Part shown: positions 3,160 to 49,460 of the stretch, one piece after another
How the letters are laid out: each line of letters starts with the position of its first letter
Position numbering within the stretch: the first letter of the stretch is position 1
Source: Emticicia sp. C21
Lineage (GTDB): Bacteria; Bacteroidota; Bacteroidia; Cytophagales; Spirosomataceae
DNA length: 64,000 nt
Direction: 5' to 3'
Assembly: GCF_003418935.1 (NCBI RefSeq)
Contig: NZ_QVMT01000008.1
Location: 109,920-173,919, forward strand
Position numbers and translations under genes: made by a program
The notes under the pieces: generated by a model
Told to the model about the DNA's origin: nothing
Seen by the model: only the letters and a program-made list of their open reading frames with translations
Databases searched by the model: none

Positions 3160-3246
3160 TTACTACCCCTTTCAACTCCGGCAGTACCTCTCTGCTGAAC
3201 CATTCGTTTTTGGCTTGCCAGATGTTGTTTCTTGGGGAGGGGTGCG
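3160..3246 (-). pseudogene. UDG C-terminal fragment (cassette copy 1)
   Basis: On the minus strand this reads PHPSPRNNIWQAKNEWF... ending VLPELK, matching residues 157 onward of the intact uracil-DNA glycosylase at 59097-59666. Over the first 26 codons it differs from the intact gene at about eleven bases, all synonymous. The match stops abruptly at the HPSP motif, where the HTH gene of the cassette begins on the other strand. Confidence 0.85.
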
Positions 3247-3691
3247 GTGCCTTTTAACGATTTGCGAAATACGCTTAGAATATCAATTAAAGGCTACATT
3301 GAAACCCCAACAACACTTGGTGATAAAATCAGGAATAGAAGAATTTAACTGCAATTGACTATACAACAAACAGTTGGCAAGAATATTAAAAGTAACCGAG
3401 GAAGCTATAGTCTATTGGGAATATAACCGAGGAAAACCGAAAGTACATAACTACCCAAAAATTATTGAGGTATTAAGCATTTTCCCTTTTGACATTGATA
3501 CAAGCACATTAGGCAGCAAGATTATATCCTATCGATACACTAAAGGATTGAGCAGAAAGAAGTTTAGTAAAATGCTTGGAGTTGATGAATCGACTCTTAA
3601 GACTTGGGAAGACAATAAATATATTCCTGTGGTACATATTATGCAGATTCTAAAAGTCTTATTTAAAGAATCCGATATGACAGATTTATAG
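3247..3691 (+). pseudogene. Double-HTH (XRE-like) protein, cassette copy 1, broken
   Basis: This is the first of five related HTH genes in the window. From the conserved GTG (3247) it reads VPFNDLRNTLR... LGDKIRNRRI and then hits TAA where other copies have GAA (Glu). Shortly after, a four-base insertion (CAACAAACAG against CAACAG) shifts the frame. The second half is intact in another frame from about 3374: KVTEEAIVYWEYNRGKPK and a second HTH, LSRKKFSKMLGVDESTLKTW. Intact relatives have two helix-turn-helix domains of the Cro/C1 type, suggesting DNA binding. With a nonsense codon and a frameshift this copy is most likely dead, although the C-terminal HTH could be translated from an internal start. 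Confidence 0.8.
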
Positions 3692-3699
3692 ATAATTAC

Positions 3700-3729
3700 A
3701 TGAGAGGTAATTTTTAAATTGCCTCTCAT
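3700..3729 (+). terminator. Hairpin terminator after HTH copy 1
   Basis: ATGAGAGG...CCTCTCAT pairs over about 14 bp including a T-rich/A-rich inner stem, with a two-base loop and one G-T pair. The core resembles the hairpin after HTH copy 5 (49423-49460), so it may belong to the cassette. Confidence 0.6.
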
Positions 3730-3947
3730 TATATATGGCATATCACCAAAGGGAATTGATGCACTATGTAAATTTGTCTTTCAGGAAGCCATTTATATTT
3801 AAATAAGTAGAAAGTAAAGCATTCAGACAAATGATTTCTTACCGGAAATAATACCTTATTATATTCCGTTTATAGATAGAGTTATAAAACAAACCTTTTT
3901 TGATTCAAGTTTAGCTAAAAGAGTATTTATCGTAAGCAATTATGCAC

Positions 3948-3955
3948 TAAATTTG
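3948..3955 (+). promoter_or_regulatory. Bacteroidota -7 box (TAAATTTG) abutting the start codon
   Basis: TAAATTTG matches the TAnnTTTG -7 element. It ends five bases before ATG 3961, so transcription would begin at or next to the start codon and the mRNA would be nearly leaderless. The -33 element is weak. Confidence 0.45.
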
Positions 3956-3960
3956 CCCGG

Positions 3961-4350
3961 ATGTTTCAATTCAAGCAAATAGCACTTCTCTTTCTTTCAC
4001 TGGCATTGGTGTTGAAATCATTTGTTGTGCCTCTTATCTGCCTGGACTATGAGATTCGCAAGGATTTTATCATCAGAAACTACTGTGTGAATAAAAACAA
4101 ACCTGAAATGCATTGCGACGGTAAATGTTTTTTAGCTAAAAGGATTAAAGCCCAGACTGAAAAAGAAGAACAAAGCGCATTACAAGATTTTATTTATAAG
4201 CTTTTAGAAGCGAATACCTTTGAAAGCCAGCAGACTTTCACTTTTAAGAATGTACTGGAAATCAAAGATTTCCCTGGTAACAACTACCTGTTTATTGAAA
4301 AACTCACACTTGACTTTTCATCCCCTATTTTTCACCCTCCTATTTGCTAA
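3961..4350 (+). CDS. Small exported protein with MHCxGKCFL motif (paralogue A)
   Basis: A 129-residue protein with an N-terminal hydrophobic signal/anchor (residues ~5-30) followed by NYCVNKNKPEMHCDGKCFLAKRIK, then a Lys/Glu-rich segment and a C-terminal F.PPIC end. The Cys-x(n)-HCxGxC arrangement could bind a metal or form a disulphide; this is inference. A second copy of the family lies at 5536. Such proteins are common and unnamed in Bacteroidota; proximity to the SCO/MbnP/peroxidase genes suggests a link to metal handling. The start follows a -7 promoter box by only five bases. Confidence 0.75.
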   Translation: MFQFKQIALLFLSLALVLKSFVVPLICLDYEIRKDFIIRNYCVNKNKPEMHCDGKCFLAKRIKAQTEKEEQSALQDFIYKLLEANTFESQQTFTFKNVLEIKDFPGNNYLFIEKLTLDFSSPIFHPPIC

Positions 4351-4565
4351 CAATCTCCTTTTATTGATTTAACAGCTAAGCTTTTAAAGAGGTAATTAGC
4401 TGATTTTTCCTGTATTTTTTAGTACAAAATAGTAGCGCTTTGCCGGGATATACCTATGTGTGTCCTTAATCGTGCTATATATCTTTAAAATCGGGGACAC
4501 TTCATATACTTACTTATTGCTCTTTCAGCAGTAGTATATTTTATCAAAATTATATTTTTAAAAAA

Positions 4566-5420
4566 ATGGAAGAACGAATACCGAAGTGTAATACTGACTT
4601 CAGAAAAGAAGGTCAGGACCAATTCTTCTTATACATACATGATAAGGTGGATACTGACCATTCGGTCATCACATATCCACATAGCCATAATTCCTATTTC
4701 CTTAGTTTCTTATATGAAGGAACAATGCAACATTTTGTGGATTTAGAGAATAGTACGATTAGTGCACCTGCCTTATTGGTTTTAACTATTGATCAGGTTC
4801 ATATTGACGCGAAACTGGATAAAGATTGTAAGGTTATTACGATGGCATTTTCTTCTGAATTTATCTATCGGCAAAACAGAAAACTGACCAATTATATGGA
4901 GACTGTTTTCTCTCAACCATTCCTTCAATTGTCTGCTAATGACTTGTCTGAACTGGATAAATACATACAACTGATTTGTTTAGAGAACAATAAAGGAAAG
5001 GATAAAAATATCGAAATAATTAATTATCTGGTAAATATTATTCTCATCCAATGCGCCAATCTATCCGAGAAAATCAAGAAAAATACTTCTTACAAAAATG
5101 ACTTGTTTCTGGACTTTAAAGACTGCCTGAATAAATTTTACAGAACCAATCATACGGTAAAGTTTTATGCCGATCAGCTGAATATCACAACATCGGTTCT
5201 CACTGAAATCGTAAAAAGAGTCAGCAATAAAACACCTAAACAAATCATAGATGAAAGATTACTTATTGAGGCTAAAAGGCTTCTTTATTGGTCTGATATT
5301 ACAGTGCGGGAAGTAGCTTGGGAGTTAGGATTCGAAACAGACGGTTATTTTATCAGGTTCTTTAAGAAGTTTACCGGAATCACCCCAGGAGATTTTCAGA
5401 AAGTTATGCAAGTTGATTAG
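4566..5420 (+). CDS. AraC-family transcriptional regulator
   Basis: The product is 284 residues. The N-terminal half is a cupin-like sensory region (HSHNSYFLSFLYEGTMQHF..., then ALLVLTIDQVH). The last ~95 residues are an HTH_18 AraC DNA-binding domain: FYADQLNITTSVLTEIVKR, then TPKQIIDERLLIEAKRLL, VREVAWELGFETDGYFIRFF and FTGITPGDFQ. It sits between the two MHCxGKCF paralogues and upstream of the copper/redox run, all on the same strand, so it may regulate them. The inducer is unknown. Confidence 0.9.
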   Translation: MEERIPKCNTDFRKEGQDQFFLYIHDKVDTDHSVITYPHSHNSYFLSFLYEGTMQHFVDLENSTISAPALLVLTIDQVHIDAKLDKDCKVITMAFSSEFIYRQNRKLTNYMETVFSQPFLQLSANDLSELDKYIQLICLENNKGKDKNIEIINYLVNIILIQCANLSEKIKKNTSYKNDLFLDFKDCLNKFYRTNHTVKFYADQLNITTSVLTEIVKRVSNKTPKQIIDERLLIEAKRLLYWSDITVREVAWELGFETDGYFIRFFKKFTGITPGDFQKVMQVD

Positions 5421-5431
5421 GAGTGTTTTGA

Positions 5432-5458
5432 GTAAGGCGACTCATGGGTCGCCTTACT
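5432..5458 (+). terminator. Strong hairpin terminator after the AraC gene
   Basis: GTAAGGCGAC and GTCGCCTTAC form a perfect 10-bp stem with a TCATGG loop, followed by a T-containing tract. It separates the regulator from the next transcription unit. Confidence 0.75.
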
Positions 5459-5523
5459 TCACATTCTTTCATAAGTGTAATGAATCATAGCAAAAGTGTA
5501 GTTAGTCCTGTGTAGGGGCATTG

Positions 5524-5531
5524 TAACTTTG
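5524..5531 (+). promoter_or_regulatory. Bacteroidota -7 box (TAACTTTG) abutting the start codon
   Basis: TAACTTTG matches TAnnTTTG and ends four bases before ATG 5536, the same geometry as for paralogue A. A possible -33 TTAG lies at 5502-5505, 18 bases upstream. It implies a leaderless or near-leaderless mRNA. Confidence 0.5.
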
Positions 5532-5535
5532 TGGC

Positions 5536-5916
5536 ATGTTTAAGAGACTTGTTTCCATATTTTTACTTTTTGCTTTGATCGGTTCAAACCTTTCACGGTA
5601 CCTTGTTGTGGCAAGTTTCAAACTAAACAGACGGTTTATCGTTGAAAATTTTTGCGAGAACAAAGCAAAACCCCAGTTGCATTGCAATGGCAGGTGTTTC
5701 TTGGCAAAAAAGCTGAAACAGGCCGAAGAAAATGAGAAAAAGCAGACCGAAAAATATGAATTGAAAAGCATTGACCCCTGTGTTTTACAGCAGATAATCC
5801 CCCTATTTAATTCATTGATTGCGGATAACACAGCAATCAGGCTTCCTATATTTTATGAATTGATATTTTTGAGTGGTTACAGGTCAAGCATTTTCAAACC
5901 TCCCCGGTTAGGATAA
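5536..5916 (+). CDS. Small exported protein with LHCxGRCFL motif (paralogue B)
   Basis: A 126-residue paralogue of the protein at 3961: hydrophobic N-terminus, NFCENKAKPQLHCNGRCFL, a Lys/Glu-rich linker (KKLKQAEENEKKQTEK) and a C-terminal IFKPPR. The HCxGxC core is kept. It precedes the SCO gene by 150 bases on the same strand. A role in metal binding or thiol chemistry is possible but unproven. Confidence 0.75.
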   Translation: MFKRLVSIFLLFALIGSNLSRYLVVASFKLNRRFIVENFCENKAKPQLHCNGRCFLAKKLKQAEENEKKQTEKYELKSIDPCVLQQIIPLFNSLIADNTAIRLPIFYELIFLSGYRSSIFKPPRLG

Positions 5917-6066
5917 ACATCTTATAAAGTATCAATCTACATCTTCTGATAGTCATCAGAGGGACTTTATTCCTGTGCCCAATCCTGATACTACTTGGTT
6001 AAGCAGACGTTGATGATACCTCATGTAGTACTCTAACCCCGACTTTAAAATTCTAATGTCAAGATC

Positions 6067-6705
6067 ATGAAAAATAAATTAATCTATGCCCTGTTATACC
6101 TGTGCATAGGAATGTCTGCCTGTGAGAAACAGCCTCGCAAATTGCCGATTTACGGGGAGAGACAGGCCACCTCTACAAACGTAAACGGCCAACTTGTGAC
6201 AGATACTACCTATCAGACCATTCCTGACTTTAAATTCCTGAATCAGGATAGCAGTTTCGTTACGAATAAGTTCTTTGATGGAAAGGTATATATCGCCGAT
6301 TTCTTTTTTACCAGTTGTACAAGTATATGCCCGATTATGCACCACAACCTTTTTAAAGTTTACGAAAATTTTAAATCAGAAGGTGATATCTTGTTTCTTT
6401 CGCACACAGTCGATTTTAAACGCGATAAGCCATCAGTGCTAAAATCCTATGCCCAAAAATTGGGTGTGGATGATAAGAGGTGGCAGTTTCTGACCGGAAC
6501 TAAAGAAGAAATTTACCCGCTTGCTGAGAAATCCTATATCTCATCTGCACAGGTTGATCCGGATAACCCGGACGGCTACGCACATTCCGGACGCTTCCTT
6601 CTGGTGGACAGGCATCGGAGAATCCGTGGTGCCTATGACGGCACCGATGAGCAGGAAGTTAAACAACTGATCGTTGATGCGCAATTACTTGTAAAGGAGA
6701 AATAG
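6067..6705 (+). CDS. SCO1/SenC-family copper/thiol lipoprotein
   Basis: A 212-residue thioredoxin-fold protein. The N-terminus is a lipoprotein signal with a lipobox ending at Cys19 (GMSAC). The SCO copper site is visible: CTSIC (Cys84 and Cys88) and the distal His173 in YAHSGRF. SCO proteins deliver copper to the CuA site of cytochrome oxidase or act as thiol reductases in the periplasm. It leads a same-strand run with MbnP-like and dihaem peroxidase genes, fitting an envelope copper/haem function. All ligands are present. Confidence 0.93.
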   Translation: MKNKLIYALLYLCIGMSACEKQPRKLPIYGERQATSTNVNGQLVTDTTYQTIPDFKFLNQDSSFVTNKFFDGKVYIADFFFTSCTSICPIMHHNLFKVYENFKSEGDILFLSHTVDFKRDKPSVLKSYAQKLGVDDKRWQFLTGTKEEIYPLAEKSYISSAQVDPDNPDGYAHSGRFLLVDRHRRIRGAYDGTDEQEVKQLIVDAQLLVKEK

Positions 6706-6712
6706 TTTCACA

Positions 6713-6732
6713 GAACCTGCTTAAACAGGTTC
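6713..6732 (+). other. Hairpin between SCO and MbnP-like genes
   Basis: GAACCTG and CAGGTTC form a perfect 7-bp stem with a CTTAAA loop. There is no T-run, so it is more likely an mRNA-processing or stability element within the operon than a terminator. Confidence 0.4.
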
Positions 6733-6750
6733 AAAATTAAAATTTAACCA

Positions 6751-7545
6751 ATGAAAAAAATAGTCAGAATAATCATGGCCATCATATTTTTAGCCGGATT
6801 TAATAATACCCTTCAGGCCCAGACAAATAAGAAGCTTGTATTGAATATACAGAATAAGATTGGTGATAAGCCTTTAAGGCTAAACGATGAATATTATACC
6901 AACCGGGCTGGTGAGAAATTCAATATAACTACCTGCAATTACTTTATCAGCAATATAAAATTTACGGGTAGCAATGGTGTAGTCTATGTGGTACCTCAGG
7001 ACAGCAGTTATTTTTTGATAAAGGAAAATGACCCGGCTACAAAAACGATTAACCTTGCAGTGCCGAAAGGTAGATATACTGCTGTTACTTTTACGATAGG
7101 GGTAGATAGCCTAAGAAGTACAACAGATTTAAGTCAGCGTAAAGGTGCACTGGATATTTCAGGCGGTATGACTGATGGCATGTACTGGACATGGAACAGT
7201 GGATACCTGTTTTTGAAACTTGAAGGAACCTGTGACCAGGCAAAAGTTGATTTAACAGGCCAACGGAAATTCAGATACCATATCGGAGGCTTTGGAGGTT
7301 ATAATAAACCTTCAATCAATAATATCAGAATAGTTACGATTGATCTCTCCGGAAAAGCAGCAATAAATTTAAAAAACAAGGCTAAGGCTACATTGGATAT
7401 CCAGGCAGATCTGTTAAAAGTATTCGATGGGCAAAATACGGTGAGTATCGCCAATGATTCCAGTGTCATGTTTGGCAATGCAAGCAAAACTGTCTCGGAT
7501 AACTATGCGGGAATGTTTAGCCATGTATCTACCTTAAAAAAGTGA
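6751..7545 (+). CDS. MbnP-like copper-binding periplasmic protein
   Basis: A 264-residue protein with a signal peptide (ending near LQAQ). The core matches the MbnP-like domain: LRLNDEYYTNRAGEKFNITTCNYFISNIKF, then GGMTDGMYWTWNSGYLF (Trp146 and Trp148). In characterised methanotroph systems, the dihaem enzyme MbnH oxidises a tryptophan of MbnP to kynurenine, which helps bind copper. A dihaem peroxidase gene follows one base after the stop here, the same pairing. Substrate and copper affinity are inferred from family and context. Confidence 0.85.
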   Translation: MKKIVRIIMAIIFLAGFNNTLQAQTNKKLVLNIQNKIGDKPLRLNDEYYTNRAGEKFNITTCNYFISNIKFTGSNGVVYVVPQDSSYFLIKENDPATKTINLAVPKGRYTAVTFTIGVDSLRSTTDLSQRKGALDISGGMTDGMYWTWNSGYLFLKLEGTCDQAKVDLTGQRKFRYHIGGFGGYNKPSINNIRIVTIDLSGKAAINLKNKAKATLDIQADLLKVFDGQNTVSIANDSSVMFGNASKTVSDNYAGMFSHVSTLKK

Positions 7546-7546
7546 T

Positions 7547-8575
7547 ATGGGACGAAAGTATGCAACCGTACTGTTAGTGCTCTGTGTCTTCGCCATGGCA
7601 TTAACAAGAATCGAGTTTACGGGTTTTTCAACACCCGTAAACTTTCCGGCCCCCGTATATGATGTAGTAAAAAATCCGGTTACGGCAGATGGTTTTAAAC
7701 TTGGGCGGAAATTATTTTATGAAAGCGCATTGTCACGCGATAACTCCATTTCATGCGGCAATTGCCATATACAGGCCGCAGGATTTACCCAGCACGGGCA
7801 TGATGTAAGTCATGGGGTTGATGATAGATTAGGCAATCGGAATTCTCCGCCTATTATGAACCTCGCCTGGAGCAAATCATTCATGTGGGATGGAGGCGTA
7901 TTTCATCTCGAATTGTTTCCGATTTCTCCGATAACCAATCCGGTAGAAATGGACGAAAAGATGGAAAACGTATTAGCTAAACTAAAAGCAGATAAGGCCT
8001 ATGAAGAGCTGTTTTATAAAGCTTATGGCAGCAAAGAAATAACCGGAAACAAGGTATTCAATGCACTTACCCAATTTATGCTCCTATGCATCAGCAGCGA
8101 TTCAAAGTATGATAGTGTTATGCGTGAAACGGGTGTTAAATTCAATGAGATTGAACAAAAAGGGTATACACTTTTTAAAAATAAATGTAGTACTTGTCAC
8201 CAGGAACCTCTCTTCACAGACGGAACTTTCAGAAACAATGGGCTTAATAATACCTATAATCCCGACATCGGTCGACAGGCGATTACACTAGATGCAAACG
8301 ACCAGTTTAAGTTCAAAGTACCCTCATTAAGAAATAATGCGTTTACCGTTCCGTATATGCACGATGGGAGGTTTACAAGCCTCGACCAGGTATTGGAGCA
8401 TTATTCAACGGGTATTACAAACAGCCCTACCTTAGACCCCTTATTAAAACAGAATGGAACCCCGGGGCTTTCATTAAATGCTGAGCAAAAGATGGCTCTC
8501 AAGGCATTTTTAAATACTTTAAATGACAAGCATTTTATAACAAGAAAAGATTTATCAGAAAATCATGAAAAATAA
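7547..8575 (+). CDS. Dihaem cytochrome c peroxidase / MauG-MbnH-like protein
   Basis: A 342-residue exported protein with an N-terminal hydrophobic signal and two c-type haem sites, CGNCH (Cys70-His74) and CSTCH (Cys214-His218). The CCP/MauG pattern SALSRDNSISCGNCH, NRNSPPIMNLAW, PFTMP-type loop NPVEM and VPSLRN...PYMHDGRF is intact. The start codon is one base after the MbnP-like stop, so translation is probably coupled. By analogy with MbnH it could modify the neighbouring MbnP-like protein; a classical peroxide-reducing role is the alternative. Confidence 0.92.
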   Translation: MGRKYATVLLVLCVFAMALTRIEFTGFSTPVNFPAPVYDVVKNPVTADGFKLGRKLFYESALSRDNSISCGNCHIQAAGFTQHGHDVSHGVDDRLGNRNSPPIMNLAWSKSFMWDGGVFHLELFPISPITNPVEMDEKMENVLAKLKADKAYEELFYKAYGSKEITGNKVFNALTQFMLLCISSDSKYDSVMRETGVKFNEIEQKGYTLFKNKCSTCHQEPLFTDGTFRNNGLNNTYNPDIGRQAITLDANDQFKFKVPSLRNNAFTVPYMHDGRFTSLDQVLEHYSTGITNSPTLDPLLKQNGTPGLSLNAEQKMALKAFLNTLNDKHFITRKDLSENHEK

Positions 8576-9197
8576 TAAACAGACAATCACTCTACTCTTC
8601 ACAGCGCTTGTCATCCTATCGTCGCTTATTACCTCTTGCAATTCGAAAGAAAATACAAAGCAGGAATCAAAGGTAAAGTATAAGCATGACGAGCCATATG
8701 CACAAAAAGTCAATGACGGCTCTATTGCTAATGACGACTATATAGGCAGCATACAAAGAACAAGCGTGGGAAAGGTTGATTCTTTAAGGGTTAGAATAAA
8801 TTATGGTTCTCCGGGCGTGCGCAAAAGAACGATATGGGGAAAACTGGTTCCCTACGATTCCCTTTGGGTCACCGGTGCCAATACGGCCACATCCATCGAA
8901 TTTTCTGAAGCTGTACATATAGAAGGCAGGAAAATCCCTGCCGGTAAATATGCGCTTTTTACCATTCCGGGAAGAAAAGAATGGACTATTATTTTCAATA
9001 AAGATTTTCAACAGCACCTTACCGATGATTATGACCAGAAGAAAGACGTGACCCGATTTTTAGTTAAACCTGACTCATTGGTAAAACCTGTGCTTAGATT
9101 AACCTATACCATTGAGAAAGTGAATGCTTCGACTGTTGAAATCTCAATGGCCTGGGAAAAACTAAAAATCTCTTTCAGCGCTGAAGTAGAAAAATAA
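8565..9197 (+). CDS. DUF2911 lipoprotein
   Basis: The ATG at 8565 overlaps the peroxidase gene by 11 bases, indicating one operon. The 210-residue product has a lipoprotein signal (LITSC, Cys ~25). The DUF2911 core is recognisable: VRINYGSPGVRKRTIWGKLVPYDSLW, TGANTATSIEFS, IPAGKYALFTIPG and WTIIFNKD. The family is secreted and uncharacterised. Its place in the operon suggests an accessory envelope function. Confidence 0.88.
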   Translation: MKNNKQTITLLFTALVILSSLITSCNSKENTKQESKVKYKHDEPYAQKVNDGSIANDDYIGSIQRTSVGKVDSLRVRINYGSPGVRKRTIWGKLVPYDSLWVTGANTATSIEFSEAVHIEGRKIPAGKYALFTIPGRKEWTIIFNKDFQQHLTDDYDQKKDVTRFLVKPDSLVKPVLRLTYTIEKVNASTVEISMAWEKLKISFSAEVEK

Positions 9198-9227
9198 CCC
9201 ATCTGAACAACAAAACAATTTCTGGAG

Positions 9228-10256
9228 ATGAGACCCCTATCCTACTTCCTTTTATTTTTAACCCTAACCTCTTGCGGGAAAAAACTTACCAATTCTCATG
9301 GGAGAATGAAACATCCGGCAGCGTATGTAGTAAACGGAGGGAGTAATACCATTTCAGTAATTGATTTAAGAAGATTGAAAGTAAAAAAAACGATACAATT
9401 ATCAATTAAAGACCGTTTCCCTCATCATATCAGTTTATCGCCGGACAGAAAAAAGCTACTGGTGGCTATGCCTGAGTTTGATTTCAGTCTGGGCCATAAT
9501 GCATTACATAAAGCGACACACAAAAAGGGAGGTATTATGGCGATGGATGTGCAAACAGAGGAGGTTCTGTTGAATTTACCGCTTCCTAAGCCCAATTTTA
9601 ATGCCGTATTCTCACATGATTATGCTGAAATATGGTCAGCAACAGCCACCCATTCAGGGAAAATGTATGTTTTTGATGCCAATACGGGTGCACAGAAAGC
9701 TGTTTTTTCGTTGGGTGCAGACCCAACTGAAATTGTATTTTCTACAAACGGGAACTACGCATTTGTGGCATTAGAAGAAAGCAGTTTTGTTTTAGCTATT
9801 GATGCCCGGTTAAAACAAATAAAGAAGTATATCAAAGTTGACCCATTTCCAACCAATGTCTGGGCCGGAGATGATGGAAATATCTATGTAGAAAACAAAA
9901 ATCTGAAAACCATTAGCATTATCAATGAACTCACGCTGGAAACCTACGAGTTTATCAACCTTGATTTTAAACCCGGACAAATTGCCTATCATACATCTTT
10001 GAACGAACTCTGGGTTTGTCAGGCCGAAGAAAACAAAATAGCTTATTTTGAAAGGAAGAATAACGCCTGGCATTTAAAATCTACTATTATCACCGGAGAA
10101 GATGCCTATGCCATTACATTCTCTGCTGACGAAAAAACGGCTTACGTGCTTAATCGAAAAGGAAATACGCTATCGATGATAGATGCAATGAAACATCAGA
10201 AACTCAGGGATATTCCGGTTGGTAAATCACCCAATGGAATGGTTTTGATTGAATAG
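9228..10256 (+). CDS. YncE/lactonase-like seven-bladed beta-propeller lipoprotein
   Basis: A 342-residue protein with a lipoprotein signal (LTLTSC). Repeated propeller-blade motifs are visible: AAYVVNGGSNTISVIDLRR, HHISLSPDRKKLLVAMPEF, FSTNGNYAFVALEES, FSADEKTAYVLNRKGNTLSMID and GKSPNGMV. This is the YncE-type 40-residue repeat. It starts 30 bases after the DUF2911 gene and precedes a strong terminator, so it is the last gene of the copper/redox run. No catalytic residues can be assigned. Confidence 0.85.
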   Translation: MRPLSYFLLFLTLTSCGKKLTNSHGRMKHPAAYVVNGGSNTISVIDLRRLKVKKTIQLSIKDRFPHHISLSPDRKKLLVAMPEFDFSLGHNALHKATHKKGGIMAMDVQTEEVLLNLPLPKPNFNAVFSHDYAEIWSATATHSGKMYVFDANTGAQKAVFSLGADPTEIVFSTNGNYAFVALEESSFVLAIDARLKQIKKYIKVDPFPTNVWAGDDGNIYVENKNLKTISIINELTLETYEFINLDFKPGQIAYHTSLNELWVCQAEENKIAYFERKNNAWHLKSTIITGEDAYAITFSADEKTAYVLNRKGNTLSMIDAMKHQKLRDIPVGKSPNGMVLIE

Positions 10257-10460: not shown

Positions 10461-10465
10461 CATTT

Positions 10466-10560
10466 TATACCTTGGACTATAATCTTCAACTCCGGCAATA
10501 CCTCTCTGCTGAACCATTCATTTTTGGCTTGCCAGATGTTGTTTCTTGGAGAGGGGTGCG
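10466..10560 (-). pseudogene. UDG C-terminal fragment (cassette copy 2)
   Basis: On the minus strand it reads HPSPRNNIWQAKNEWF... and ends LKIIVQGIK-stop, matching the final 32 residues of the intact UDG (which ends LKIVVQGIL-stop). Similarity covers the UDG stop region and breaks at HPSP, where HTH copy 2 begins. Confidence 0.85.
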
Positions 10561-10983: not shown

Positions 10984-11080
10984 GACCGGAAATAAAGAAT
11001 TTCCTAAATTAATACGTATTGTTAAATGCCTTTTGGAGGAGAGTGTTCTACAATTACTAGTTGGAAAACAACGAATAGCT

Positions 11081-11117: not shown

Positions 11118-11273
11118 AATATAATCCAAATCTTTATAAAAAGTTTCAATGATAAAACAGGTAGCAACTAAAATACCAATATATTATCTATTTAACTAAG
11201 CTATCTACCAGAATTTGATTATTATTGTGGGATTATTTATGATTTTGTTGTTGCTAAAACATTATTGATTTTC

Positions 11274-40556: not shown

Positions 40557-40586
40557 TATTCTTTCCTGATGTCTGGCTATACTTGT

Positions 40587-41663: not shown

Positions 41664-41670
41664 ATGGGTG

Positions 41671-44600
41671 TTAAATGCTAATGTTTTCATTTTCAGGTAG
41701 TAAGGAAACTGATTTAAAAGATGCTTTTTGTTGGATCCAGCCATACACTAAAGGGACAATTAATAATGAGGCAAACGTAGAGAAGATAAGCCCACCGATA
41801 ACGGCTCTGCCTAGTGGTGCCGATTGTTCTCCTGCTTCGCCAAGTCCGCTGGCCATCGGTATCATTCCGGCAATCATAGCCAGACTGGTCATTAAGATAG
41901 GTCTGAAGCGCACACTTGCGGCTGTTACTGCTGCCTTGAAAGGATTTTTATAACTCAATCGCAAAGATTCGGCATTGGTTACTATCAGAATAGCATTAGC
42001 TACTGATACCCCTATACTCATGATGATACCCATATAAGACTGGAGATTAAGTGTCGCTCCGGTAGCCATCAATAATAGCAACGAACCCAATAATACGGCA
42101 GGAACAGTAGACAAAACCGAGAGTGCTACGCCAAAAGACTGATAATTGGCAGCTAATAGGAGCAACACCACAACAATAGCTACACCTAAACCTGTTTGAA
42201 GGGAATCGAGTGTTTCTGTAAGTAAAGAGGCCATTCCTTTTACCTCTACCACCATGCCTTTGGGTGGGGTACCTAGTTTATCGATGGTTTTCTTTACTGC
42301 ATTGGAAGCCTCACCTAAATCTTTCTTGTGAATATTGGCACTCACGGTCAAGAATCTTCTTGGGCCTGTTCGATCATATTGGCCCGGAAGCGTATCAATC
42401 GACATCTGCGCTACATCTGAAAGTACCGGGCGAGATTTGCCTTTTACTAATGAAATAGATTGCAACTGCTCCATTGAGTTCATCAGGTATTCTGGTACCT
42501 GCACCTGTACCTGATAGGTATAGGATACTTTCTGGTCGAGCCATTGCACTTTTTCGGTAAAGCGGCTGGATGAGGTAGCATCGGTAATACTTCTGGCTAC
42601 CTCTTGCAGATTCAGCCCCATCTGCGCCAGCCTGAATCGGTCTATATTGATTTTAATAACCGGAAATTTGAGAGGCTGGGCTATCTGTACATCTCGCAGA
42701 TAACTAACCTGATGCAGACTATCCACTAATCGACGCGAATATGATTTAATATCTTCGAAATTCTTACCTATTACTCTCACCTCGATAGGTGTAGCAGCGC
42801 CTTGTGCCATGATTTTCTCAGTCAGTTCAATAGGCTCAAAAGATATTCTGATTTTCGGATAAGCCTTTTTGATATTAGCCCGAATCTGGTCTTTTAAATC
42901 ATCCAGATTTCCTTTGAAATCTTCTCCCATATTAGCTTGCATAATGGCCTCATGTGTACCACTATTAAATACATACAAGTTACTTGAACCATAACTACTT
43001 GGAATAATACCTATATATACCGAAGAAATCTCAACTTTCCCTTTAATAGTTGAGTCCATGATGGCTAATATACCCTTTACATCTCTTTCGGTTTTTTCCA
43101 GTCTTGTTCCTTCGGGTTCTTTGATACGTAGTTGTACTTGTCCGTTATTGGTTTTAGGCAGTAAGTCTTTCCCGATCAAATAGAAGCAAAGGCCGGATGC
43201 TGCTAAAGTCAACAACAGATAAAAACTTACAATTGCTTTTCTGCTTCGCATCCATCTTTCAAGCATATTTGCCAGGCTTACTTTTACTCTTTGGAAAAAT
43301 GAATTATCATTTCCGTGTTGTCTATCTTGTCTGTCATGCTCTTCTACTTCTTCAATCTCTCCTGAATCTAAAGCCAGACCTCCATGAGCATGAAATTTAG
43401 AATGATGATATTGAAACATTTCTTCTTTCAATAACCAGTTAGAAATAACAGGCACAAGGGTTTGGGCGGCAATGAAAGAGACAATCATAGAAAAGCCTAT
43501 TGATAGGGATAAAGGCAAAAACATGGCTTTGGGTACACCTGTCATCACAAACGATGGCGCAAAAACGGCCAGAATACAAAGTAGAATCAGGAGCAAAGGG
43601 AAGGAAATCTCTTCACAGGCATCCAGGATTGCCTGCTTTTTGGTTTTACCCATTTCGAGGTGCTGATGAATGTTCTCAATAGTCACAGTAGCCTGGTCAA
43701 CCAATACCCCAATAGCTAAGGCCAGACCACTAAGGGTCATGATATTAATGGTTTGCCCTGCCATTTTCAGTAATAATACTCCAATAAGGATAGAGATTGG
43801 AATCGTAATAACTACTACCAGACTACTCCGCCAATCTTTCAGGAACAGTAACACCATCAGCCCGGTAAGCACGGCCCCCAAAATCCCCTCTGTCATTAAG
43901 CTTTTTACGGCATTAATTACAAACACCGACTGGTCAAACTCGTAGCTGATGCTTACATCATCCGGCAATAAGGCTCTCATTTCGGGTAGTTTGGCTCTCA
44001 AGCCTTGTACCACTGCCCATGTAGATGCATTAGCAGTTTTTACAATTGGAATATAGATGGAGCGTTTTCCATTGACTAAGGCATAATCGACAGTGACGTC
44101 AGCAGCGTCAGATACTGTGGCTACATCATGTATAAAAACGGTAGCTGAACCATTGGTGCTTAGTGGAATATCTTCAAAATGTTGTACTTTTTCTTCGAGT
44201 GAGTTCACACTAGTTACATACATTAAATCGTTGACACGCAGGTTGCCTGAGGGTGTCATAGCATTATTTTTAGCAATGGCTTCAACCACCTGGTCGGGTG
44301 AAAGATTATATCTGCGGAGTTTTTCAGGGTCAACATTCACTACTACCGATCTTGAATTGGCTCCCATAGCATGGGGTGCTGTAAGCCCCGGAACCGTTCC
44401 AAACATCGGACGAATGTAGGTAGAGGCTAAATCGTACATCTCTTTGAGCGATTTGGTCTTACTATCAAATACTAGCTGACCAACAGGCATAGACGAAACG
44501 TCGAAACGGATTACCTGCGGTGGTAAAGCACCTGGAGGAAAGAATTTTGAAGCACGATTTACCTGCAAAGCCACCTGCGCCGAAGCCTCGGCCATATCGG

Positions 44601-44889
44601 TGTCTTCATAAAATGCCAGCTTAATAAAAGTAAGCCCCTGTATATTTTTACTTTCGATAGATTTAAGTCCATTTACATACAGGAATTGTTCCTGCAGACG
44701 TGTCGCAAAGAAACCCTCCATTTGTTGAGGAGACATACCCCCGTAAGACTCCATGACGTAGATGGTTGGTAGATTTAACTGAGGGAAAATATCAATCGGT
44801 ATCTTCGGAATGGCCATGATACCAAACAAAAGCAGTCCGGTGAAGAGCACTACTATGGTGATAGGTCTTTTTAATGCGAGTCTTACCAT
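41671..44889 (-). CDS. RND-family efflux pump, inner-membrane subunit
   Basis: A 1072-residue AcrB/CzcA-superfamily transporter. It has TM1 (IVVLFTGLLLFG), the IDIFPQLNLPTIYV porter start, two large periplasmic loops, and the TM4 motif GVLVDQATVTIENIH. A His/Asp-rich cytoplasmic linker lies in the middle (YHHSKFHAHGG, EEHDRQDRQHG). Proton relay normally uses two adjacent aspartates in TM4; here the pair reads Asp-Gln. The His-rich loop hints at metal sensitivity, but substrate cannot be assigned. The stop lies seven bases before the fusion-protein start; the TolC-like gene is upstream. Confidence 0.93.
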   Translation of the reverse strand: MVRLALKRPITIVVLFTGLLLFGIMAIPKIPIDIFPQLNLPTIYVMESYGGMSPQQMEGFFATRLQEQFLYVNGLKSIESKNIQGLTFIKLAFYEDTDMAEASAQVALQVNRASKFFPPGALPPQVIRFDVSSMPVGQLVFDSKTKSLKEMYDLASTYIRPMFGTVPGLTAPHAMGANSRSVVVNVDPEKLRRYNLSPDQVVEAIAKNNAMTPSGNLRVNDLMYVTSVNSLEEKVQHFEDIPLSTNGSATVFIHDVATVSDAADVTVDYALVNGKRSIYIPIVKTANASTWAVVQGLRAKLPEMRALLPDDVSISYEFDQSVFVINAVKSLMTEGILGAVLTGLMVLLFLKDWRSSLVVVITIPISILIGVLLLKMAGQTINIMTLSGLALAIGVLVDQATVTIENIHQHLEMGKTKKQAILDACEEISFPLLLILLCILAVFAPSFVMTGVPKAMFLPLSLSIGFSMIVSFIAAQTLVPVISNWLLKEEMFQYHHSKFHAHGGLALDSGEIEEVEEHDRQDRQHGNDNSFFQRVKVSLANMLERWMRSRKAIVSFYLLLTLAASGLCFYLIGKDLLPKTNNGQVQLRIKEPEGTRLEKTERDVKGILAIMDSTIKGKVEISSVYIGIIPSSYGSSNLYVFNSGTHEAIMQANMGEDFKGNLDDLKDQIRANIKKAYPKIRISFEPIELTEKIMAQGAATPIEVRVIGKNFEDIKSYSRRLVDSLHQVSYLRDVQIAQPLKFPVIKINIDRFRLAQMGLNLQEVARSITDATSSSRFTEKVQWLDQKVSYTYQVQVQVPEYLMNSMEQLQSISLVKGKSRPVLSDVAQMSIDTLPGQYDRTGPRRFLTVSANIHKKDLGEASNAVKKTIDKLGTPPKGMVVEVKGMASLLTETLDSLQTGLGVAIVVVLLLLAANYQSFGVALSVLSTVPAVLLGSLLLLMATGATLNLQSYMGIIMSIGVSVANAILIVTNAESLRLSYKNPFKAAVTAASVRFRPILMTSLAMIAGMIPMASGLGEAGEQSAPLGRAVIGGLIFSTFASLLIVPLVYGWIQQKASFKSVSLLPENENISI

Positions 44890-44941
44890 ATTAAGAGGTT
44901 TTTATTTTCTGCAGAGCAGATGGGTATTAAATTCTTTTATC

Positions 44942-46333
44942 TTACTTGTTATCAACCTGATTAAGGAATATTGACAAATTGCCCACTGACGCTGCTTTTA
45001 AGAGCAGAGCCCTCCATACGTTATTGATAGCTATCGACTGGTCAACTTCCGCTCTATTGAGTAGCAGAAAAGCCTGTGATACTTCGGGCAGTGTAGCCAG
45101 ACCAGATTCATATCTGGCAGTAGCTTGCTGGTAAGCGCCACGGGCTGCTATTGTCTGCACAGGTGCTTCGAGTGCCTGTTCCAGCGCTAATCCAATCTGA
45201 ATATTAGCATTCTCGCTCTGACTATTTAATCGTAGTTCTTCTTCCTGCAATAGAAATTGAAACTGTTCGGCTCGTTGTTGCTCAGCCGAAACCTGATGGC
45301 GAATGCGGTAAATAGGTGTTAGATTCCAACTAATACCCACGCCTAAGAGATAATTGCCGACCTGATAGCCGATGCCATCGAAGATTTTAGAACTATATCT
45401 GTCATTTGCATTACCCACGCCCGAACCTCTACCCCAGGCAGAAGCATTGAGAATAATGCTGGGATAATATGATTTTCTGATGGCGGCAGCACGAGACCTG
45501 ATTAAATCAATCTGTGAGCTATAAACTTTAAGAAGCGGATTCTGTGAAATATCAGGGTACTCTTTGAGGAGCGTTGGTAGTTTCTGGTAAAACTGCATCG
45601 AATCGGCTGCCATATTGCCAGTAGCAGTACCCATCAATTGTCCCAAACGAATGCGTTGGGTTCGCTCGTTCTGCTGACTTTGGTAGAGTAAAAGTTTAGC
45701 TTTTGATACCTCTGCACTGGCAAATGAGCTATCGATACCTGCGCGCAAACCTGATAATACTTTGGCATTGGTTGCATCACGAAAAGTCTGAGCTCTTTGT
45801 AGGTTTACCTCCTGTATCCTGACAGTTTTCTGAAAAACCAGGAGTGCCAGATAGGCATCTATGACCTTTACCTGTTGCTGAAAAATCTCGTTCTGGTAGT
45901 CAAACTCCTGACGAACGGCCGCTTTCTGAGCAACGTCTATATTGGCTTTTATTTTACCAAAAGTAAAAGCCTGCCAGTTTACCTGCAGATTAGTAAAGCT
46001 ACCCCACACTGGTTGATAGATGTTCTCAGGACGGATACCACCTGAAACTGAAGGAAAGGGACTTTGCAGGGGAAAAGTAGCTCCGGCCAAACTGTTATTG
46101 GTTGCCAACTGATATTGGTGCTGTGCAATAACATCAGGCAGACTTTCGGTCTGAGCCGCTTTCAGGGCAAATTCGGCTATGTTTTTTTCAGCTATTTTAG
46201 CTTTAATAGACGGATAGTTTTTGACGGCTAAATCAATAGCTTCTGTCAAACTTACTTTATCAGGCACTACCTGCTGGCTAAAAGCCAAGTGCTGAAACAG
46301 CAGACAACTCACAAACAAATACTTTTTCTTCAT
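44942..46333 (-). CDS. TolC-like outer membrane efflux protein
   Basis: Starting at ATG 46333 (MKKKYLFVSCLLFQHLAFSQ) gives a 463-residue protein with a good signal peptide; an upstream ATG at 46366 would prefix a non-signal segment. It has two OEP repeats with long helices (LTEAIDLAVKNYPSIKAKIAEKNIAE, and a second half beginning near LLKVYSSQIDLIRSRAAAIR) and YESGLATLPEVSQA. It supplies the outer-membrane channel for the RND pump encoded next. Confidence 0.9.
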   Translation of the reverse strand: MKKKYLFVSCLLFQHLAFSQQVVPDKVSLTEAIDLAVKNYPSIKAKIAEKNIAEFALKAAQTESLPDVIAQHQYQLATNNSLAGATFPLQSPFPSVSGGIRPENIYQPVWGSFTNLQVNWQAFTFGKIKANIDVAQKAAVRQEFDYQNEIFQQQVKVIDAYLALLVFQKTVRIQEVNLQRAQTFRDATNAKVLSGLRAGIDSSFASAEVSKAKLLLYQSQQNERTQRIRLGQLMGTATGNMAADSMQFYQKLPTLLKEYPDISQNPLLKVYSSQIDLIRSRAAAIRKSYYPSIILNASAWGRGSGVGNANDRYSSKIFDGIGYQVGNYLLGVGISWNLTPIYRIRHQVSAEQQRAEQFQFLLQEEELRLNSQSENANIQIGLALEQALEAPVQTIAARGAYQQATARYESGLATLPEVSQAFLLLNRAEVDQSIAINNVWRALLLKAASVGNLSIFLNQVDNK

Positions 46334-46446
46334 TCTACAAAGGAAATTAAGGCAAGTGTGAACCACTGCTTATCTACTTAAGCAGGTACGAAAACAAAAG
46401 TCTAATCACATTCTTAGAAAGTCCTTAGTAGGAAATTAAAAAATTC

Positions 46447-47820
46447 TTAAAGTGAGAGATGAGGTAAAAAAACTGTAAAAGTAGAACCCTGCATAGGTTG
46501 GCTGTCGATGGTAATATGCCCCCCGTGCAGATCTATAATTTTCTGACATATGGATAAGCCTATTCCGAAGCCTTGCATTTCAAAGGCATTTTCGCCCCGA
46601 TAAAAGGGTTCGAAGATATTTGGCAAATCCTCTTTCGGGATACCGATACCTTTATCTACTATCTGAACAATGCAATCTTTCTCGTTAAAATCTATCAGCA
46701 CATCCACAGGTTGTTGGTTACTGTATTTAATGGCATTATCTAGTAAATTCAAAAAGGCATTTTTGAGCAGAGATTCGTTACCTTTAATAAGGGTAAAGTG
46801 CTCGTCAGAAGGAATAGTCACAAAGTTAGTTCTGACAATGGTATCCGGTTTACTATGTTTCAATTCTTTTTGTAGAGAAAGTATCAGTTCTTCAATACGA
46901 ATATTTTCAATTTTAGAAAGGTTAAAATTATCAATTGGCCGAGCCATTTGCAGCAGACTGTTTGACAATGAAATTAGTTTATCGGTGTCTTCAAGAATAT
47001 TTCTTAGGATTTTTTCATATTCAACTGAACTAAGTTTTTCTTCCAGTCCCAATTGCACTTCTGATTTAATGCCTGCCAAAGGTGTACGCAGTTCATGCGA
47101 AGCGTGGGAAACGAAACTACGTTGTTGCTCAAAACCTAATTCTAACCTATTAAGCATCTGGTTGAAATTATGAGCCAGTTCGGCTATTTCGTCTTTATTA
47201 TTGCCTTCATTTACACGCTTTCTTAAATTCTGGGCAGTTATCTGGTCTATTTGTTGATTGATTGCCATGAAAGGCTGTAAAGCTTGTCCGGCAAAGAACA
47301 TTCCGCTAATGATTACCACAAGAATAATTAGCAAAAAGCTTATTAGTAAAGTCTGGCGAAGACTTTTCAGGTTATTTTCTCCGTCTACATCAATGCCTGA
47401 TTCAATAACAATAAAATTGTCAAATTTGCCATCAAATAAAATTCCAAGGTTTTCACGGTTATTAATTTTAAACTCGACCATATTCTGCATCTTTATTTTG
47501 TCGAGTAAGGCTTCATTAAAGTCTTTTGGTACTGTTTCAGCATTCGAGAAAACCAGTTGGTTTTTGGTATTAAAAATATATACTTCTTCACCATCCAAAC
47601 GATTCACAGAGGTCTTATCCATGATTCGGATTAATTCAGGAGAAAACCCTTTTACATCAAATAATAGTCTGGCAGTAGTAATGGCTCTTTTGCTTAACCT
47701 GCCTCTAAAAGTTTCCTGACGCTTTTGATCCTCTCGATAATAGATAAAACCGGAAAAAATCAGGAGATTAAAAGCCACTATCAAAGAAAATTGCAAAACA
47801 ATCTTATATCTGATTTTCAT
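46447..47820 (-). CDS. Sensor histidine kinase, efflux-linked
   Basis: A 457-residue two-TM kinase: TM1 ~11-28, a periplasmic sensor (~30-155), TM2 ~158-178, HAMP, HisKA with SHASHELRTPLAG (His242), N box LLDNAIKYS, G1 DKGIGIPKEDLPNIF, F box FEPFYRG and G2 GFGIGLSICQ. All catalytic boxes are intact. It follows the OmpR-type regulator and precedes the TolC-RND-MFP genes on the same strand, so it most likely senses an envelope toxicant and controls the pump. Confidence 0.93.
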   Translation of the reverse strand: MKIRYKIVLQFSLIVAFNLLIFSGFIYYREDQKRQETFRGRLSKRAITTARLLFDVKGFSPELIRIMDKTSVNRLDGEEVYIFNTKNQLVFSNAETVPKDFNEALLDKIKMQNMVEFKINNRENLGILFDGKFDNFIVIESGIDVDGENNLKSLRQTLLISFLLIILVVIISGMFFAGQALQPFMAINQQIDQITAQNLRKRVNEGNNKDEIAELAHNFNQMLNRLELGFEQQRSFVSHASHELRTPLAGIKSEVQLGLEEKLSSVEYEKILRNILEDTDKLISLSNSLLQMARPIDNFNLSKIENIRIEELILSLQKELKHSKPDTIVRTNFVTIPSDEHFTLIKGNESLLKNAFLNLLDNAIKYSNQQPVDVLIDFNEKDCIVQIVDKGIGIPKEDLPNIFEPFYRGENAFEMQGFGIGLSICQKIIDLHGGHITIDSQPMQGSTFTVFLPHLSL

Positions 47821-47959
47821 GGGGAAGTCTATTGAGTGATTGAGAGATTGGTTTAATGGCGAATTATGAATTGCGGATTAGCAAATAAATTGATTGCCAT
47901 AAAGTACACTACAAACACGATGTTTTACAATTAGTTTTTCAATGCTTTTAGCCCTTTGC

Positions 47960-48652
47960 TTACTCTTCCCGAAGGACATATCCCAGACCTGACTTGGTGT
48001 GAATTAGTTTAGGGTCAAAATCTTTGTCAATTTTTTTGCGTAGGTAATTAATATATACTTCAATGATATTAGTGCTTGAATCAAAGTTCAAATCCCAGAC
48101 ATTTTCAGCTATATCCATTTTAGAAAGCACTCGTCCACGATTTCTGATAAGGTATTCTAATAAGGCAAATTCACGGGCAGTCAGGTCAATCATTTTACCT
48201 GAGCGCACAGCTACTTTTTTATCCAGATGGATTTCAAGGTCAGCTACCCTTAGAACTTCTTTGATAGCTTTTACAGGTGCTTGTGAGTTACGTCTTAATA
48301 AGGCATTAACACGGGCAAATAATTCTCTGAAATCGAACGGTTTTACTATATAATCGTCGGCGCCGTTGTCCAATCCCTCTACTTTATCTTCAATCTCACC
48401 CAAAGCTGTCAGCATTAATATGGGTAAAGATGGCTTTTGACCTCTGATAGCAAAACATACATCAAACCCATTCATCAGAGGTAAATTAATATCAAGAATA
48501 ACTAAATCAAAAGGCTCTGAAAGTGCTTTTCTTAAACCCACATGTCCATCAAAAGCTACATCCGTTAAAAAGCCATTTTTTTGTAAGCCCTTTACCAGAT
48601 TGTCCGAAATCCGACGGTCATCTTCAATGACAAGTATATTCTTTTTTTCCAA
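47960..48652 (-). CDS. OmpR/PhoB-family response regulator
   Basis: A 230-residue protein with a receiver domain (IEDDRR at the acidic pocket, phospho-acceptor Asp54 in VILDINLP, Lys in VKPFDF) and a C-terminal winged helix (LTAREFALLEYLIRNRGRVL, NIIEVYINYLRKKID, VLREE). It is the first gene of the minus-strand efflux cluster, 139 bases ahead of its kinase. Confidence 0.93.
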   Translation of the reverse strand: MEKKNILVIEDDRRISDNLVKGLQKNGFLTDVAFDGHVGLRKALSEPFDLVILDINLPLMNGFDVCFAIRGQKPSLPILMLTALGEIEDKVEGLDNGADDYIVKPFDFRELFARVNALLRRNSQAPVKAIKEVLRVADLEIHLDKKVAVRSGKMIDLTAREFALLEYLIRNRGRVLSKMDIAENVWDLNFDSSTNIIEVYINYLRKKIDKDFDPKLIHTKSGLGYVLREE

Positions 48653-48882
48653 TGTATTTTGAGCGTAATTGGTTATTTATCTCTGCAAGGTGAAATTAAT
48701 AACTTAGAAAGTAATTAGCTTCGTATTAAAATTCGCTTAAAAGGTTTTCAAACAATTTATTTAAAAAAGCTCAAAATAAACAATTCTGATTACATAGACA
48801 ACTAGAGTTGAAAGGAGGTGTTTTTTTTATAGTCAGTAGCATAAGTGTTCGTATACTTACGAGAGTTTTAGGAGTTGCTTAT

Positions 48883-48977
48883 TATACTTTGGACTACAAT
48901 TTTTAACTCCGGCAGCACCTCTCTGCCAAACCATTCATTTTTGGCCTGCCAGATGTTGTTTCTCGGTGAGGGGTGCG
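48883..48977 (-). pseudogene. UDG C-terminal fragment (cassette copy 5)
   Basis: The minus strand reads HPSPRNNIWQAKNEWFGREV, LPELKIVVQSI and then continues past the position of the UDG stop. Apart from one Ser-to-Gly change and one Gly-to-Ser change, differences from the intact gene are synonymous. Confidence 0.85.
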
Positions 48978-49418
48978 TTGCCTTTTAACGATTTGCGAAA
49001 TACGCTTAGAAAACCCATTAAACGCTATAAGAACGCTCCCGAAACTCTTGGAGACAAGATTAGAAACAGAAGAATTGAACTTCAGCTTACTTTAGACCAG
49101 CTTGCCACATTATTAAATGTAACAAAGGAAGCTGTAGTCTATTGGGAATATAACCGGGGAAAACCCAAAGTACATAACTATCCAAAAATTATTGAGGTAT
49201 TAGGCATTTTTGCTTTTGACGTTGATACAAGCACATTAGGAGGCAAAATTATAGCCTATCGCTATACTAAAGGATTGAGTAGAAAGAAGTTTAGTAATTT
49301 GCTTGGGGTTGATGAATCTACTCTTAAGAATTGGGAGGATAATAAATATATTCCTTTGGAACATATTATGCAGACTCTGCGAATCTTATTTAAAGAGTCC
49401 GCTCTGATAAATTTATAG
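48978..49418 (+). CDS. Double-HTH (XRE-like) protein, cassette copy 5
   Basis: The start is TTG 48978 with GGTGAGGGG upstream; the product is 146 residues. First HTH LGDKIRNRRIELQLTLDQLA...VTKEAVVYWEYNRGKPK; second HTH LGGKIIAYRYTKGLSRKKFS...GVDESTLKNWEDNK. The frame is intact and it shares the RNTLRKPIKRYKNAP segment with copy 4. A perfect terminator hairpin follows five bases after the stop. Confidence 0.83.
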   Translation: MPFNDLRNTLRKPIKRYKNAPETLGDKIRNRRIELQLTLDQLATLLNVTKEAVVYWEYNRGKPKVHNYPKIIEVLGIFAFDVDTSTLGGKIIAYRYTKGLSRKKFSNLLGVDESTLKNWEDNKYIPLEHIMQTLRILFKESALINL

Positions 49419-49422
49419 ATAA

Positions 49423-49460
49423 TTAATTGAGAGGCGATTTTTTAATCGCCTCTCAATTAA
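49423..49460 (+). terminator. Perfect 17-bp terminator hairpin after HTH copy 5
   Basis: TTAATTGAGAGGCGATT pairs perfectly with AATCGCCTCTCAATTAA around four T residues. Its GAGAGG core resembles the hairpin after copy 1. The following ~245 bases to 49707 hold nothing I recognise. Confidence 0.8.

What the first reader, a model, noticed from the sequence alone, without database searches (positions are those of the whole stretch)
3160..49460. Dispersed chimeric cassette: antisense UDG 3' end joined to a double-HTH gene, five copies
At 3160, 10466, 12141, 39337 and 48883 the same unit recurs: ~85-95 bases matching the last codons of the UDG gene in antisense, joined without gap to a GTG/TTG-initiated double-HTH gene, usually followed by a strong hairpin. 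The join is at the same UDG codons (HPSP) every time. The units sit between unrelated operons with no recombinase inside. No described mobile element of this form is known to me. It could be a repeat that spreads in trans, or a unit captured repeatedly by horizontal transfer.
Basis: partly seen in the sequence, partly recalled or inferred. Interest (0 to 1): 0.9.

Follow-up and report, generated by a model that had tools for sequence, protein, structure and literature searches.

The report
Repeated insertion scars behind one gene
Blocks of genes seem to have been inserted again and again just behind a DNA-repair gene in this bacterium, most of them leaving a displaced copy of the gene's tail joined to a small regulator gene; it looks like a new variant of a known way that bacterial genomes grow.

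Summary
In detail: five units (UDG 3' end in antisense, then a double-HTH gene, joined at the HPSP codons) lie where stated, and two decayed ones lie left of the window. It is not a dispersed repeat: all seven have one orientation and lie on the 3' side of the intact UDG (59097-59666, -) within about 70 kb; genome searches found none elsewhere, though they would miss very decayed copies. In G001 (same genus) UDG and a transporter gene are about 1 kb apart; here they are about 80 kb apart. In another genus (G477) a 2.5 kb insert follows UDG, then an 81 bp, 96% identical displaced UDG tail that starts 9 bp from the same point; the UDG regions of three relatives lack the insert. I read the UDG 3' end as an attachment site for integrating cassettes that restore the gene tail and stack up (tandem accretion, CIME-like). 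A near-invariant 44 bp block spans the junction. No recombinase was recognised in 53 ORFs scanned, so site-specific recombination is inferred. Against: mosaicism is not confined to the junction, most cassette right ends are dissimilar, and one block occurs in G008 without units. New variant of a known kind.

The parts
59097..59666 (-). intact uracil-DNA glycosylase gene (UDG superfamily PF03167), the proposed target; its 3' end (59097 to about 59198) is the part repeated in the units
   Evidence: dN/dS 0.04-0.10 among G000, G001 and G008
48880..49465 (+). unit 5: UDG 3' end (48880-48977), core block 48968-49011, intact double-HTH gene 48966-49418, hairpin
39334..39858 (+). unit 4: diverged UDG 3' end (39334-39429), core block 39420-39463, intact double-HTH gene 39409-39858; nearest hairpin found at about 40047
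12142..12720 (+). unit 3: UDG 3' end, core block 12215-12258, intact double-HTH gene 12225-12665, hairpin
10465..11120 (+). unit 2: UDG 3' end (10466-10560), core block 10551-10594, intact HTH gene 10546-10983, hairpin
3160..3735 (+). unit 1: UDG 3' end (3170-3247), core block 3237-3280, HTH gene broken near its start (ORF left 3374-3691), hairpin
12215..12258 (+). 44 bp core block at the junction (unit 3; one in each of the five units): 10 bp of UDG HPSP codons plus 34 bp of HTH-gene start
11265..12107 (+). 280 aa ORF of unknown kind, the only ORF of at least 80 aa between units 2 and 3; its last 99 bp recur at 77% at 58982-59080 beside the intact UDG
40113..48652 (-). cargo block between units 4 and 5: RND efflux operon with histidine kinase and response regulator; homologous DNA in G001 lies on another contig without a detected unit
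3961..10256 (+). cargo block between units 1 and 2: AraC-type regulator, SCO1, MbnP, MauG-like and others
49708..58737 (.). cargo block between unit 5 and UDG: LytTR two-component pair, beta-propeller protein, TonB-receptor-like protein
60432..60568 (-). UDG 5' fragment (86-88%) cut at codons IVH|N; a fragment with the same cut is found in G008 (C68)

Best explanation
The 3' end of this UDG gene is an attachment site for integrating DNA cassettes. A cassette carries its own copy of the last ~90 bp of UDG at one end; recombination at the HPSP codons swaps it in, so UDG stays whole, and the old tail is pushed away beyond the cassette. In this lineage the cassette's other end begins with a double-HTH gene, so each pushed-out tail ends up fused in antisense to an HTH gene. 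Repeated integration at the restored end stacked about seven cassettes between UDG and a transporter gene. Shown: the anatomy, the one-sided one-way array, the near-empty site in G001, an independent insert in G477 with its junction 9 bp away and three relatives without it, and purifying selection on the intact HTH genes. Inferred: site-specific recombination by an enzyme acting in trans or since lost, the 44 bp block as its site, the order of events, and the HTH protein as the cassette's own regulator or recombination factor.
For: (1) 7 of 7 copies found have one orientation and lie on the 3' side of the intact UDG within about 70 kb; none found elsewhere. (2) G001: UDG is about 1 kb from the ABC-transporter gene; in G000 the same genes, syntenic beyond, are about 80 kb apart. 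(3) G477, another genus: intact UDG, about 2.5 kb with no match in the fetched UDG regions of G478, G293 and G311 (positive control with the sulfatase gene worked), an 81 bp, 96% UDG 3' repeat, then the sulfatase gene that follows UDG in those three with one gene between (G478, G293) or two (G311). (4) The two outermost copies are the most decayed, the next (3160) is broken, the four nearest UDG are intact. (5) Core block: 41 of 44 columns invariant in 6 units, against 144 of 378 variable overall; 0 of 5000 column shuffles give as long a run with at most one variable column. (6) UDG side and HTH side trees reject each other (AU p about 0.006 both ways, two trees compared). (7) HTH dN/dS 0.14-0.25 with dS 0.43-0.55 in 6 pairs of 4 intact genes. 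(8) The efflux cargo lies elsewhere in G001, no unit in the stretch fetched.
Against: No recombinase family in 53 ORFs scanned with Pfam, including the three of the G477 insert, nor by motif (no positive control). The best single parsimony breakpoint lies inside the HTH gene, not at the core, and the HTH gene is itself mosaic, so homologous exchange among copies can explain the tree conflict. Only 2 of 55 pairs of sequences left of the UDG segments are similar, so a conserved cassette right end is not seen. In G008 the 501 aa gene and the MarR/TonB block lie near the transporter without units, so not all of the 80 kb need be cassettes, and G001 could instead have lost sequence. The outermost copy shows no HTH remnant. 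Cargo looks like ordinary operons. G008's UDG appears to lie at another place in the chromosome. G477 has no HTH gene at the junction. UDG 5' fragments cut at IVH|N are not explained by a 3'-end site alone.
Confidence: 0.58

Rival explanations
1. Homology-facilitated illegitimate recombination: incoming or relocated DNA that carries a UDG copy pairs with UDG, and the other end closes at a short match near HPSP. No dedicated recombinase is involved. It gives the same scars (whole UDG, cargo, displaced tail).
For: No recombinase recognised (and earlier Pfam scans); mosaic HTH genes show homologous exchange; cargo is ordinary operons; right ends mostly dissimilar.
Against: Junctions in two genera lie 9 bp apart in a 570 bp gene; chance of that is about 3% by my own estimate. 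Near-invariant core block.
Confidence: 0.22
2. The unit (UDG tail plus HTH gene) is itself a small non-autonomous mobile element that jumps locally, and the cargo was there before.
For: One cargo block is present in G008 without units; the G008 unit lies about 340 bp from a UDG gene that appears to sit at another chromosomal place.
Against: One orientation in 7 of 7, one side of UDG, none found in the rest of the genome; no inverted-repeat pair of at least 40 nt in the window (shorter ends not examined); the G477 scar has no HTH gene.
Confidence: 0.1
3. One ancestral UDG-tail/HTH fusion was multiplied by old local duplications, and the spaces were filled by unrelated insertions.
For: Same junction and core in the six full copies; all copies of G000 are local.
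Against: Cargo between units is mostly not duplicated (a 99 bp gene end is shared by two places); UDG segments conflict with the HTH tree; the independent G477 case.
Confidence: 0.1

Closest known systems
ssrA-specific genomic islands of Dehalococcoides (PMC3146451; abstract and one results section read)
   Same: Tandem islands bounded by the intact target gene or direct repeats of its 3' end; all repeats within 100 kb downstream of the target; no duplicate islands in a strain; a conserved motif beside the repeat that does not align with the target gene.
   Different: Target is a protein gene (UDG), the repeat is ~90 bp rather than 20 bp, no integration module was recognised (16 of their 31 islands have one), and a double-HTH gene sits at the boundary.
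CIMEs and tandem accretion of ICE/IME (PMC5704250, passages seen; Pavlovic 2004 only as listed in its references)
   Same: Elements with attachment sites kept and integration genes lost; [quoted passage not shown]
   Different: No autonomous partner element was found here; mobility not shown; the HTH gene is kept under selection.
IMEX elements that use host Xer recombinases, one of which encodes the XerD-activating factor XafT (PMC9765430, passages seen)
   Same: Integration without an own recombinase, helped in one case by a small factor.
   Different: No dif-like site was looked for or shown; the HTH proteins match the VC1465 Xer-activation-factor model only weakly (29.7 and 31.8 bits, cut-off 70), alongside many other HTH families.

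Membership tests
Tandem-accreted islands / CIMEs at a gene 3' end | Direct repeats of the target gene's 3' end bound each block, same orientation and downstream of the intact gene | tested here: met
   (7 of 7 copies found); for G477
Tandem-accreted islands / CIMEs at a gene 3' end | Target gene restored and intact | tested here: met
Tandem-accreted islands / CIMEs at a gene 3' end | Empty site in relatives | tested here: met
   G478, G293, G311 for the G477 insert; for G000 only a near-empty site in G001, where loss in G001 is not excluded
Tandem-accreted islands / CIMEs at a gene 3' end | Conserved element-end motif beside the repeat | tested here: met
   34 bp of the 44 bp core lie outside UDG; not seen in G477
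Tandem-accreted islands / CIMEs at a gene 3' end | Conserved sequence at the other cassette end | tested here: inconclusive
   2 of 55 pairs similar at E 0.01 or better
Tandem-accreted islands / CIMEs at a gene 3' end | Excision or mobilisation by an integrase | not testable with these tools
   needs an experiment
Autonomous integrative element (ICE, IME, island with integrase) | Encodes an integrase | tested here: not met
   Pfam on 53 ORFs (41 of the window, 9 left of it, 3 of the G477 insert) gave no recombinase family; motif scan gave none
Insertion sequence or dispersed repeat | Copies at scattered places in both orientations | tested here: not met
   very decayed copies could be missed
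Integron cassette array | attC sites and intI | tested here: inconclusive
   same-orientation array, but no tyrosine recombinase among the ORFs scanned; attC not tested
IMEX | dif-like attachment site | not tested
   chromosomal dif of this genus not determined

The most novel reading that the evidence does not exclude
A recombinase-free family of integrating cassettes in which the double-HTH protein binds the 44 bp junction block and recruits a host recombinase, making the tail of a DNA-repair gene a gene-capture platform for ordinary operons.
Probability: 0.12. Interest if true: 0.75.

Novelty: new variant of a known kind. Interest (0 to 1): 0.52.

Why it matters
If right, an accessory UDG gene (found in 3 of 11 genomes of the genus) is a recurrent integration site in this bacterial family, in at least two genera with unrelated cargo, and whole operons accumulate behind it without a recognisable recombinase. 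Displaced protein-gene tails then offer a simple way to find recombinase-less genomic islands, and the conserved core plus HTH gene give a defined system for testing how such cassettes move.

Tried and rejected
Dispersed repeat: rejected. Segmental duplication: the two-component genes right of units -7277 and 48883 are only about 30% identical proteins, so not a recent block duplication. Site-specific exchange proven by tree conflict: weakened, because the best breakpoint is not at the core and the HTH gene is mosaic. Search for other carriers: HTH protein in plasmids, no match in 72,556 records at E 1e-4; HTH profile in viral contigs, 92 pattern matches, none confirmed; core pattern in viral contigs, no exact match; core with up to 3 mismatches in 11 genus genomes, 5 places in G000 and 1 in G008, all units; HTH profile in a drawn sample of 390 order genomes at E 1e-9, only G000 and G367 (G008, which matches, was evidently not in that sample); the single genome-contig hit (Clostridia) I judged a generic HTH protein on reading it, likewise the weak G017 hit. 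UDG as a mobile gene: 136 of 72,556 plasmid records match, 133 of them over at least 80% of the protein, all below 60% identity; 2 weak phage records; this did not decide anything. Literature: searches listed no paper that I recognised as describing this UDG as an island attachment site; the two papers returned with UDG among the terms were PMC5971314 (passages seen, UDG as a plasmid repair gene) and PMC10945833 (passages seen, UDG as a cargo gene). A sixth search failed and was not repeated. Rfam: no match in the window at gathering thresholds. The core block has no unusually stable fold. No structure prediction was run.
Full report
What was checked. The five units are at the stated places. 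Each is a segment of about 80-100 bp matching the antisense of the UDG 3' end, joined at codons HPSP to a GTG or TTG ORF; the four intact ones encode 145-150 aa with XRE-type HTH domains. The 3160 copy is broken near its start. Hairpins follow 4 of 5 closely.

Distribution. In the whole genome (6.64 Mb, 33 contigs) UDG DNA matches itself, one 5' fragment, five 3' fragments and three weak places (E 0.04-0.5) that look like chance. Unit DNA matches seven places, all on contig C32: the five units, UDG itself and one decayed copy. Self-comparison of C32:70100-193800 adds one more decayed 3' fragment, which the genome-wide searches had not returned; copies as decayed elsewhere could therefore have been missed. 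So there are seven displaced 3' ends, at window coordinates -11351, -7277, 3160, 10466, 12141, 39337 and 48883. All are on the + strand and left of UDG, that is on its 3' side. The copy at -7277 keeps about 67 bp of HTH gene (78%); the one at -11351 keeps none detectable. The outer copies are thus the most decayed.

Relatives. UDG occurs in 3 of 11 genus genomes (G000, G001, G008). HTH matches occur in the same three of the genus, partial or broken in G001, plus one weak hit in G017 among 38 genomes that I take as a generic HTH protein. In G001 the order is restriction-like gene, two small genes, UDG, GNAT gene, ABC transporter; the transporter and genes beyond it are syntenic with G000, where the transporter ends at window -20483, about 80 kb from UDG. 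In G002 the conserved outer genes are about 5 kb apart and enclose what looks by eye like a restriction-modification cluster. In G008 one unit, its HTH gene apparently split by an insertion element across a contig break, lies about 340 bp from a complete UDG, apparently at another place in the chromosome.

Independent case. Among 222 family genomes 19 have a UDG match at E 1e-4 or better, and displaced 3' ends appear in G000, G008 and G477 only (fragments of diverged UDGs could be missed). In G477, of another genus, intact UDG is followed by about 2.5 kb with three ORFs, then an 81 bp repeat of the UDG 3' end at 96% identity, then a sulfatase-like gene. That gene follows UDG in G478, G293 and G311 (proteins 77% identical to that of G477), with one gene between in G478 and G293 and two in G311, and the insert finds no match in their fetched UDG regions, while the sulfatase gene used as control does. 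The repeat starts in the HPSP codons, 9 bp from the G000 junction. I examined the flanks of 17 UDG loci (G001, G477 and 15 others) for such repeats; only G477 had one, besides single 14-18 bp chance-level hits in G478 and G375.

Junction. In six units (five of G000, one of G008) a 44 bp block across the junction is invariant in 41 columns, while 144 of 378 columns vary overall. Its first 10 bp are UDG codons, the rest HTH-gene start. Among the four intact genes the first 11 codons carry 0 to 2 synonymous differences per pair. With up to 3 mismatches it occurs in 11 genus genomes only in the units. Trees of the two sides reject each other (AU p about 0.006), but a breakpoint scan puts the best single break within the HTH gene and finds the HTH gene mosaic. 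So homologous exchange among copies is very likely, and exchange at the core is only plausible. Outer ends of the UDG segments seem to resemble different UDG alleles: 3160 is like G001, 10466 like G000 (by eye in the alignment).

Age and function. The intact HTH genes have dN/dS 0.14-0.25 and dS 0.43-0.55, so they are old and kept functional. The cargo is ordinary: SCO1, MbnP and MauG-like genes (copper-related by my reading), an RND efflux operon with two-component regulators, adhesin-like genes, TonB-receptor-like genes. DNA homologous to the efflux operon sits on another contig in G001, with no unit detected in the 19.9 kb fetched.

Ends. The 99 bp left of the UDG segment at 12141 (the end of the 280 aa gene) recur beside the intact UDG at 77%, and 38 bp left of the 48883 segment match G008's UDG flank. 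These are the only 2 similar pairs of 55 at E 0.01. So some cassettes may share a right end; most do not.

Mechanism. I commit to tandem accretion at the UDG 3' end with restoration of the gene tail (0.58). Shown: array geometry, near-empty and empty sites, an independent insert, selection on HTH genes. Inferred: a site-specific recombinase in trans or lost, the order of events and the role of the HTH protein. Pfam scans of 53 ORFs (41 of the window, 9 left of it, 3 of the G477 insert) gave no recombinase family, and a motif scan without a positive control gave none; the rest of the genome was not searched for one. The main rival is homology-facilitated illegitimate recombination (0.22).

Comparison. 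Dehalococcoides ssrA islands have the same geometry (PMC3146451, abstract and section 5 read). CIME accretion is the same idea (PMC5704250, passages). Differences are the protein-gene target, the long repeat, the HTH gene at the boundary and the missing recombinase.

Results against my reading. G008 has the 501 aa gene and the MarR/TonB block near the transporter without units, so part of the 80 kb may be old backbone, and loss in G001 is not excluded. The 5' fragments of UDG cut at IVH|N in G000 and G008 need a second kind of event. Three partial or broken HTH copies in G001 (C12) lie on one strand over about 98 kb; two share a short leader that only faintly recalls the HPSP region (by eye).

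Noticed in passing
60432-60568 (-); L048 9133-9267 (G008 C68): UDG 5' fragments in two genomes cut at the same codons (IVH|N), beside a restriction-like gene here and, in G008, between an ArdC-like gene and CRISPR-type genes (the G008 neighbours named by eye from the ORF list).
   Followed up: partly
L034 953-10115 (G008 C89): Next to UDG in G008: 1049 aa AAA and PRTase-CE protein (PADLOC PRTase_III-A), a 1208 aa protein with weak ResIII/AAA matches and a 719 aa protein without match; perhaps a defence operon.
   Followed up: partly
L030 about 12381-12456 (window -7538 to -7463): Near-perfect 76 bp palindrome between a cargo block and the decayed unit at -7277.
   Followed up: no
15002-33661: Two giant ORFs (3266 and 2460 aa), about 34% identical over 1000 aa or more, both with a DUF6443 domain; the first has many internal repeats.
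   Followed up: partly
window -3553 to 2691: Three tandem paralogous ORFs of 663-771 aa, 54-65% identical, with Kelch and/or Peptidase_S74 chaperone domains.
   Followed up: partly
G001 C12: 438448, 525520, 536413 (L035, L036): Three partial or broken relatives of the double-HTH gene, all on one strand; one sits directly at the end of a gene that I read as DUF1080-like (recalled, not searched).
   Followed up: partly
L071 10076-12983 (G002): At the corresponding place in G002 lies a DNA methyltransferase-like gene with two further genes: the site looks like a hot spot for restriction-type genes (by eye).
   Followed up: no
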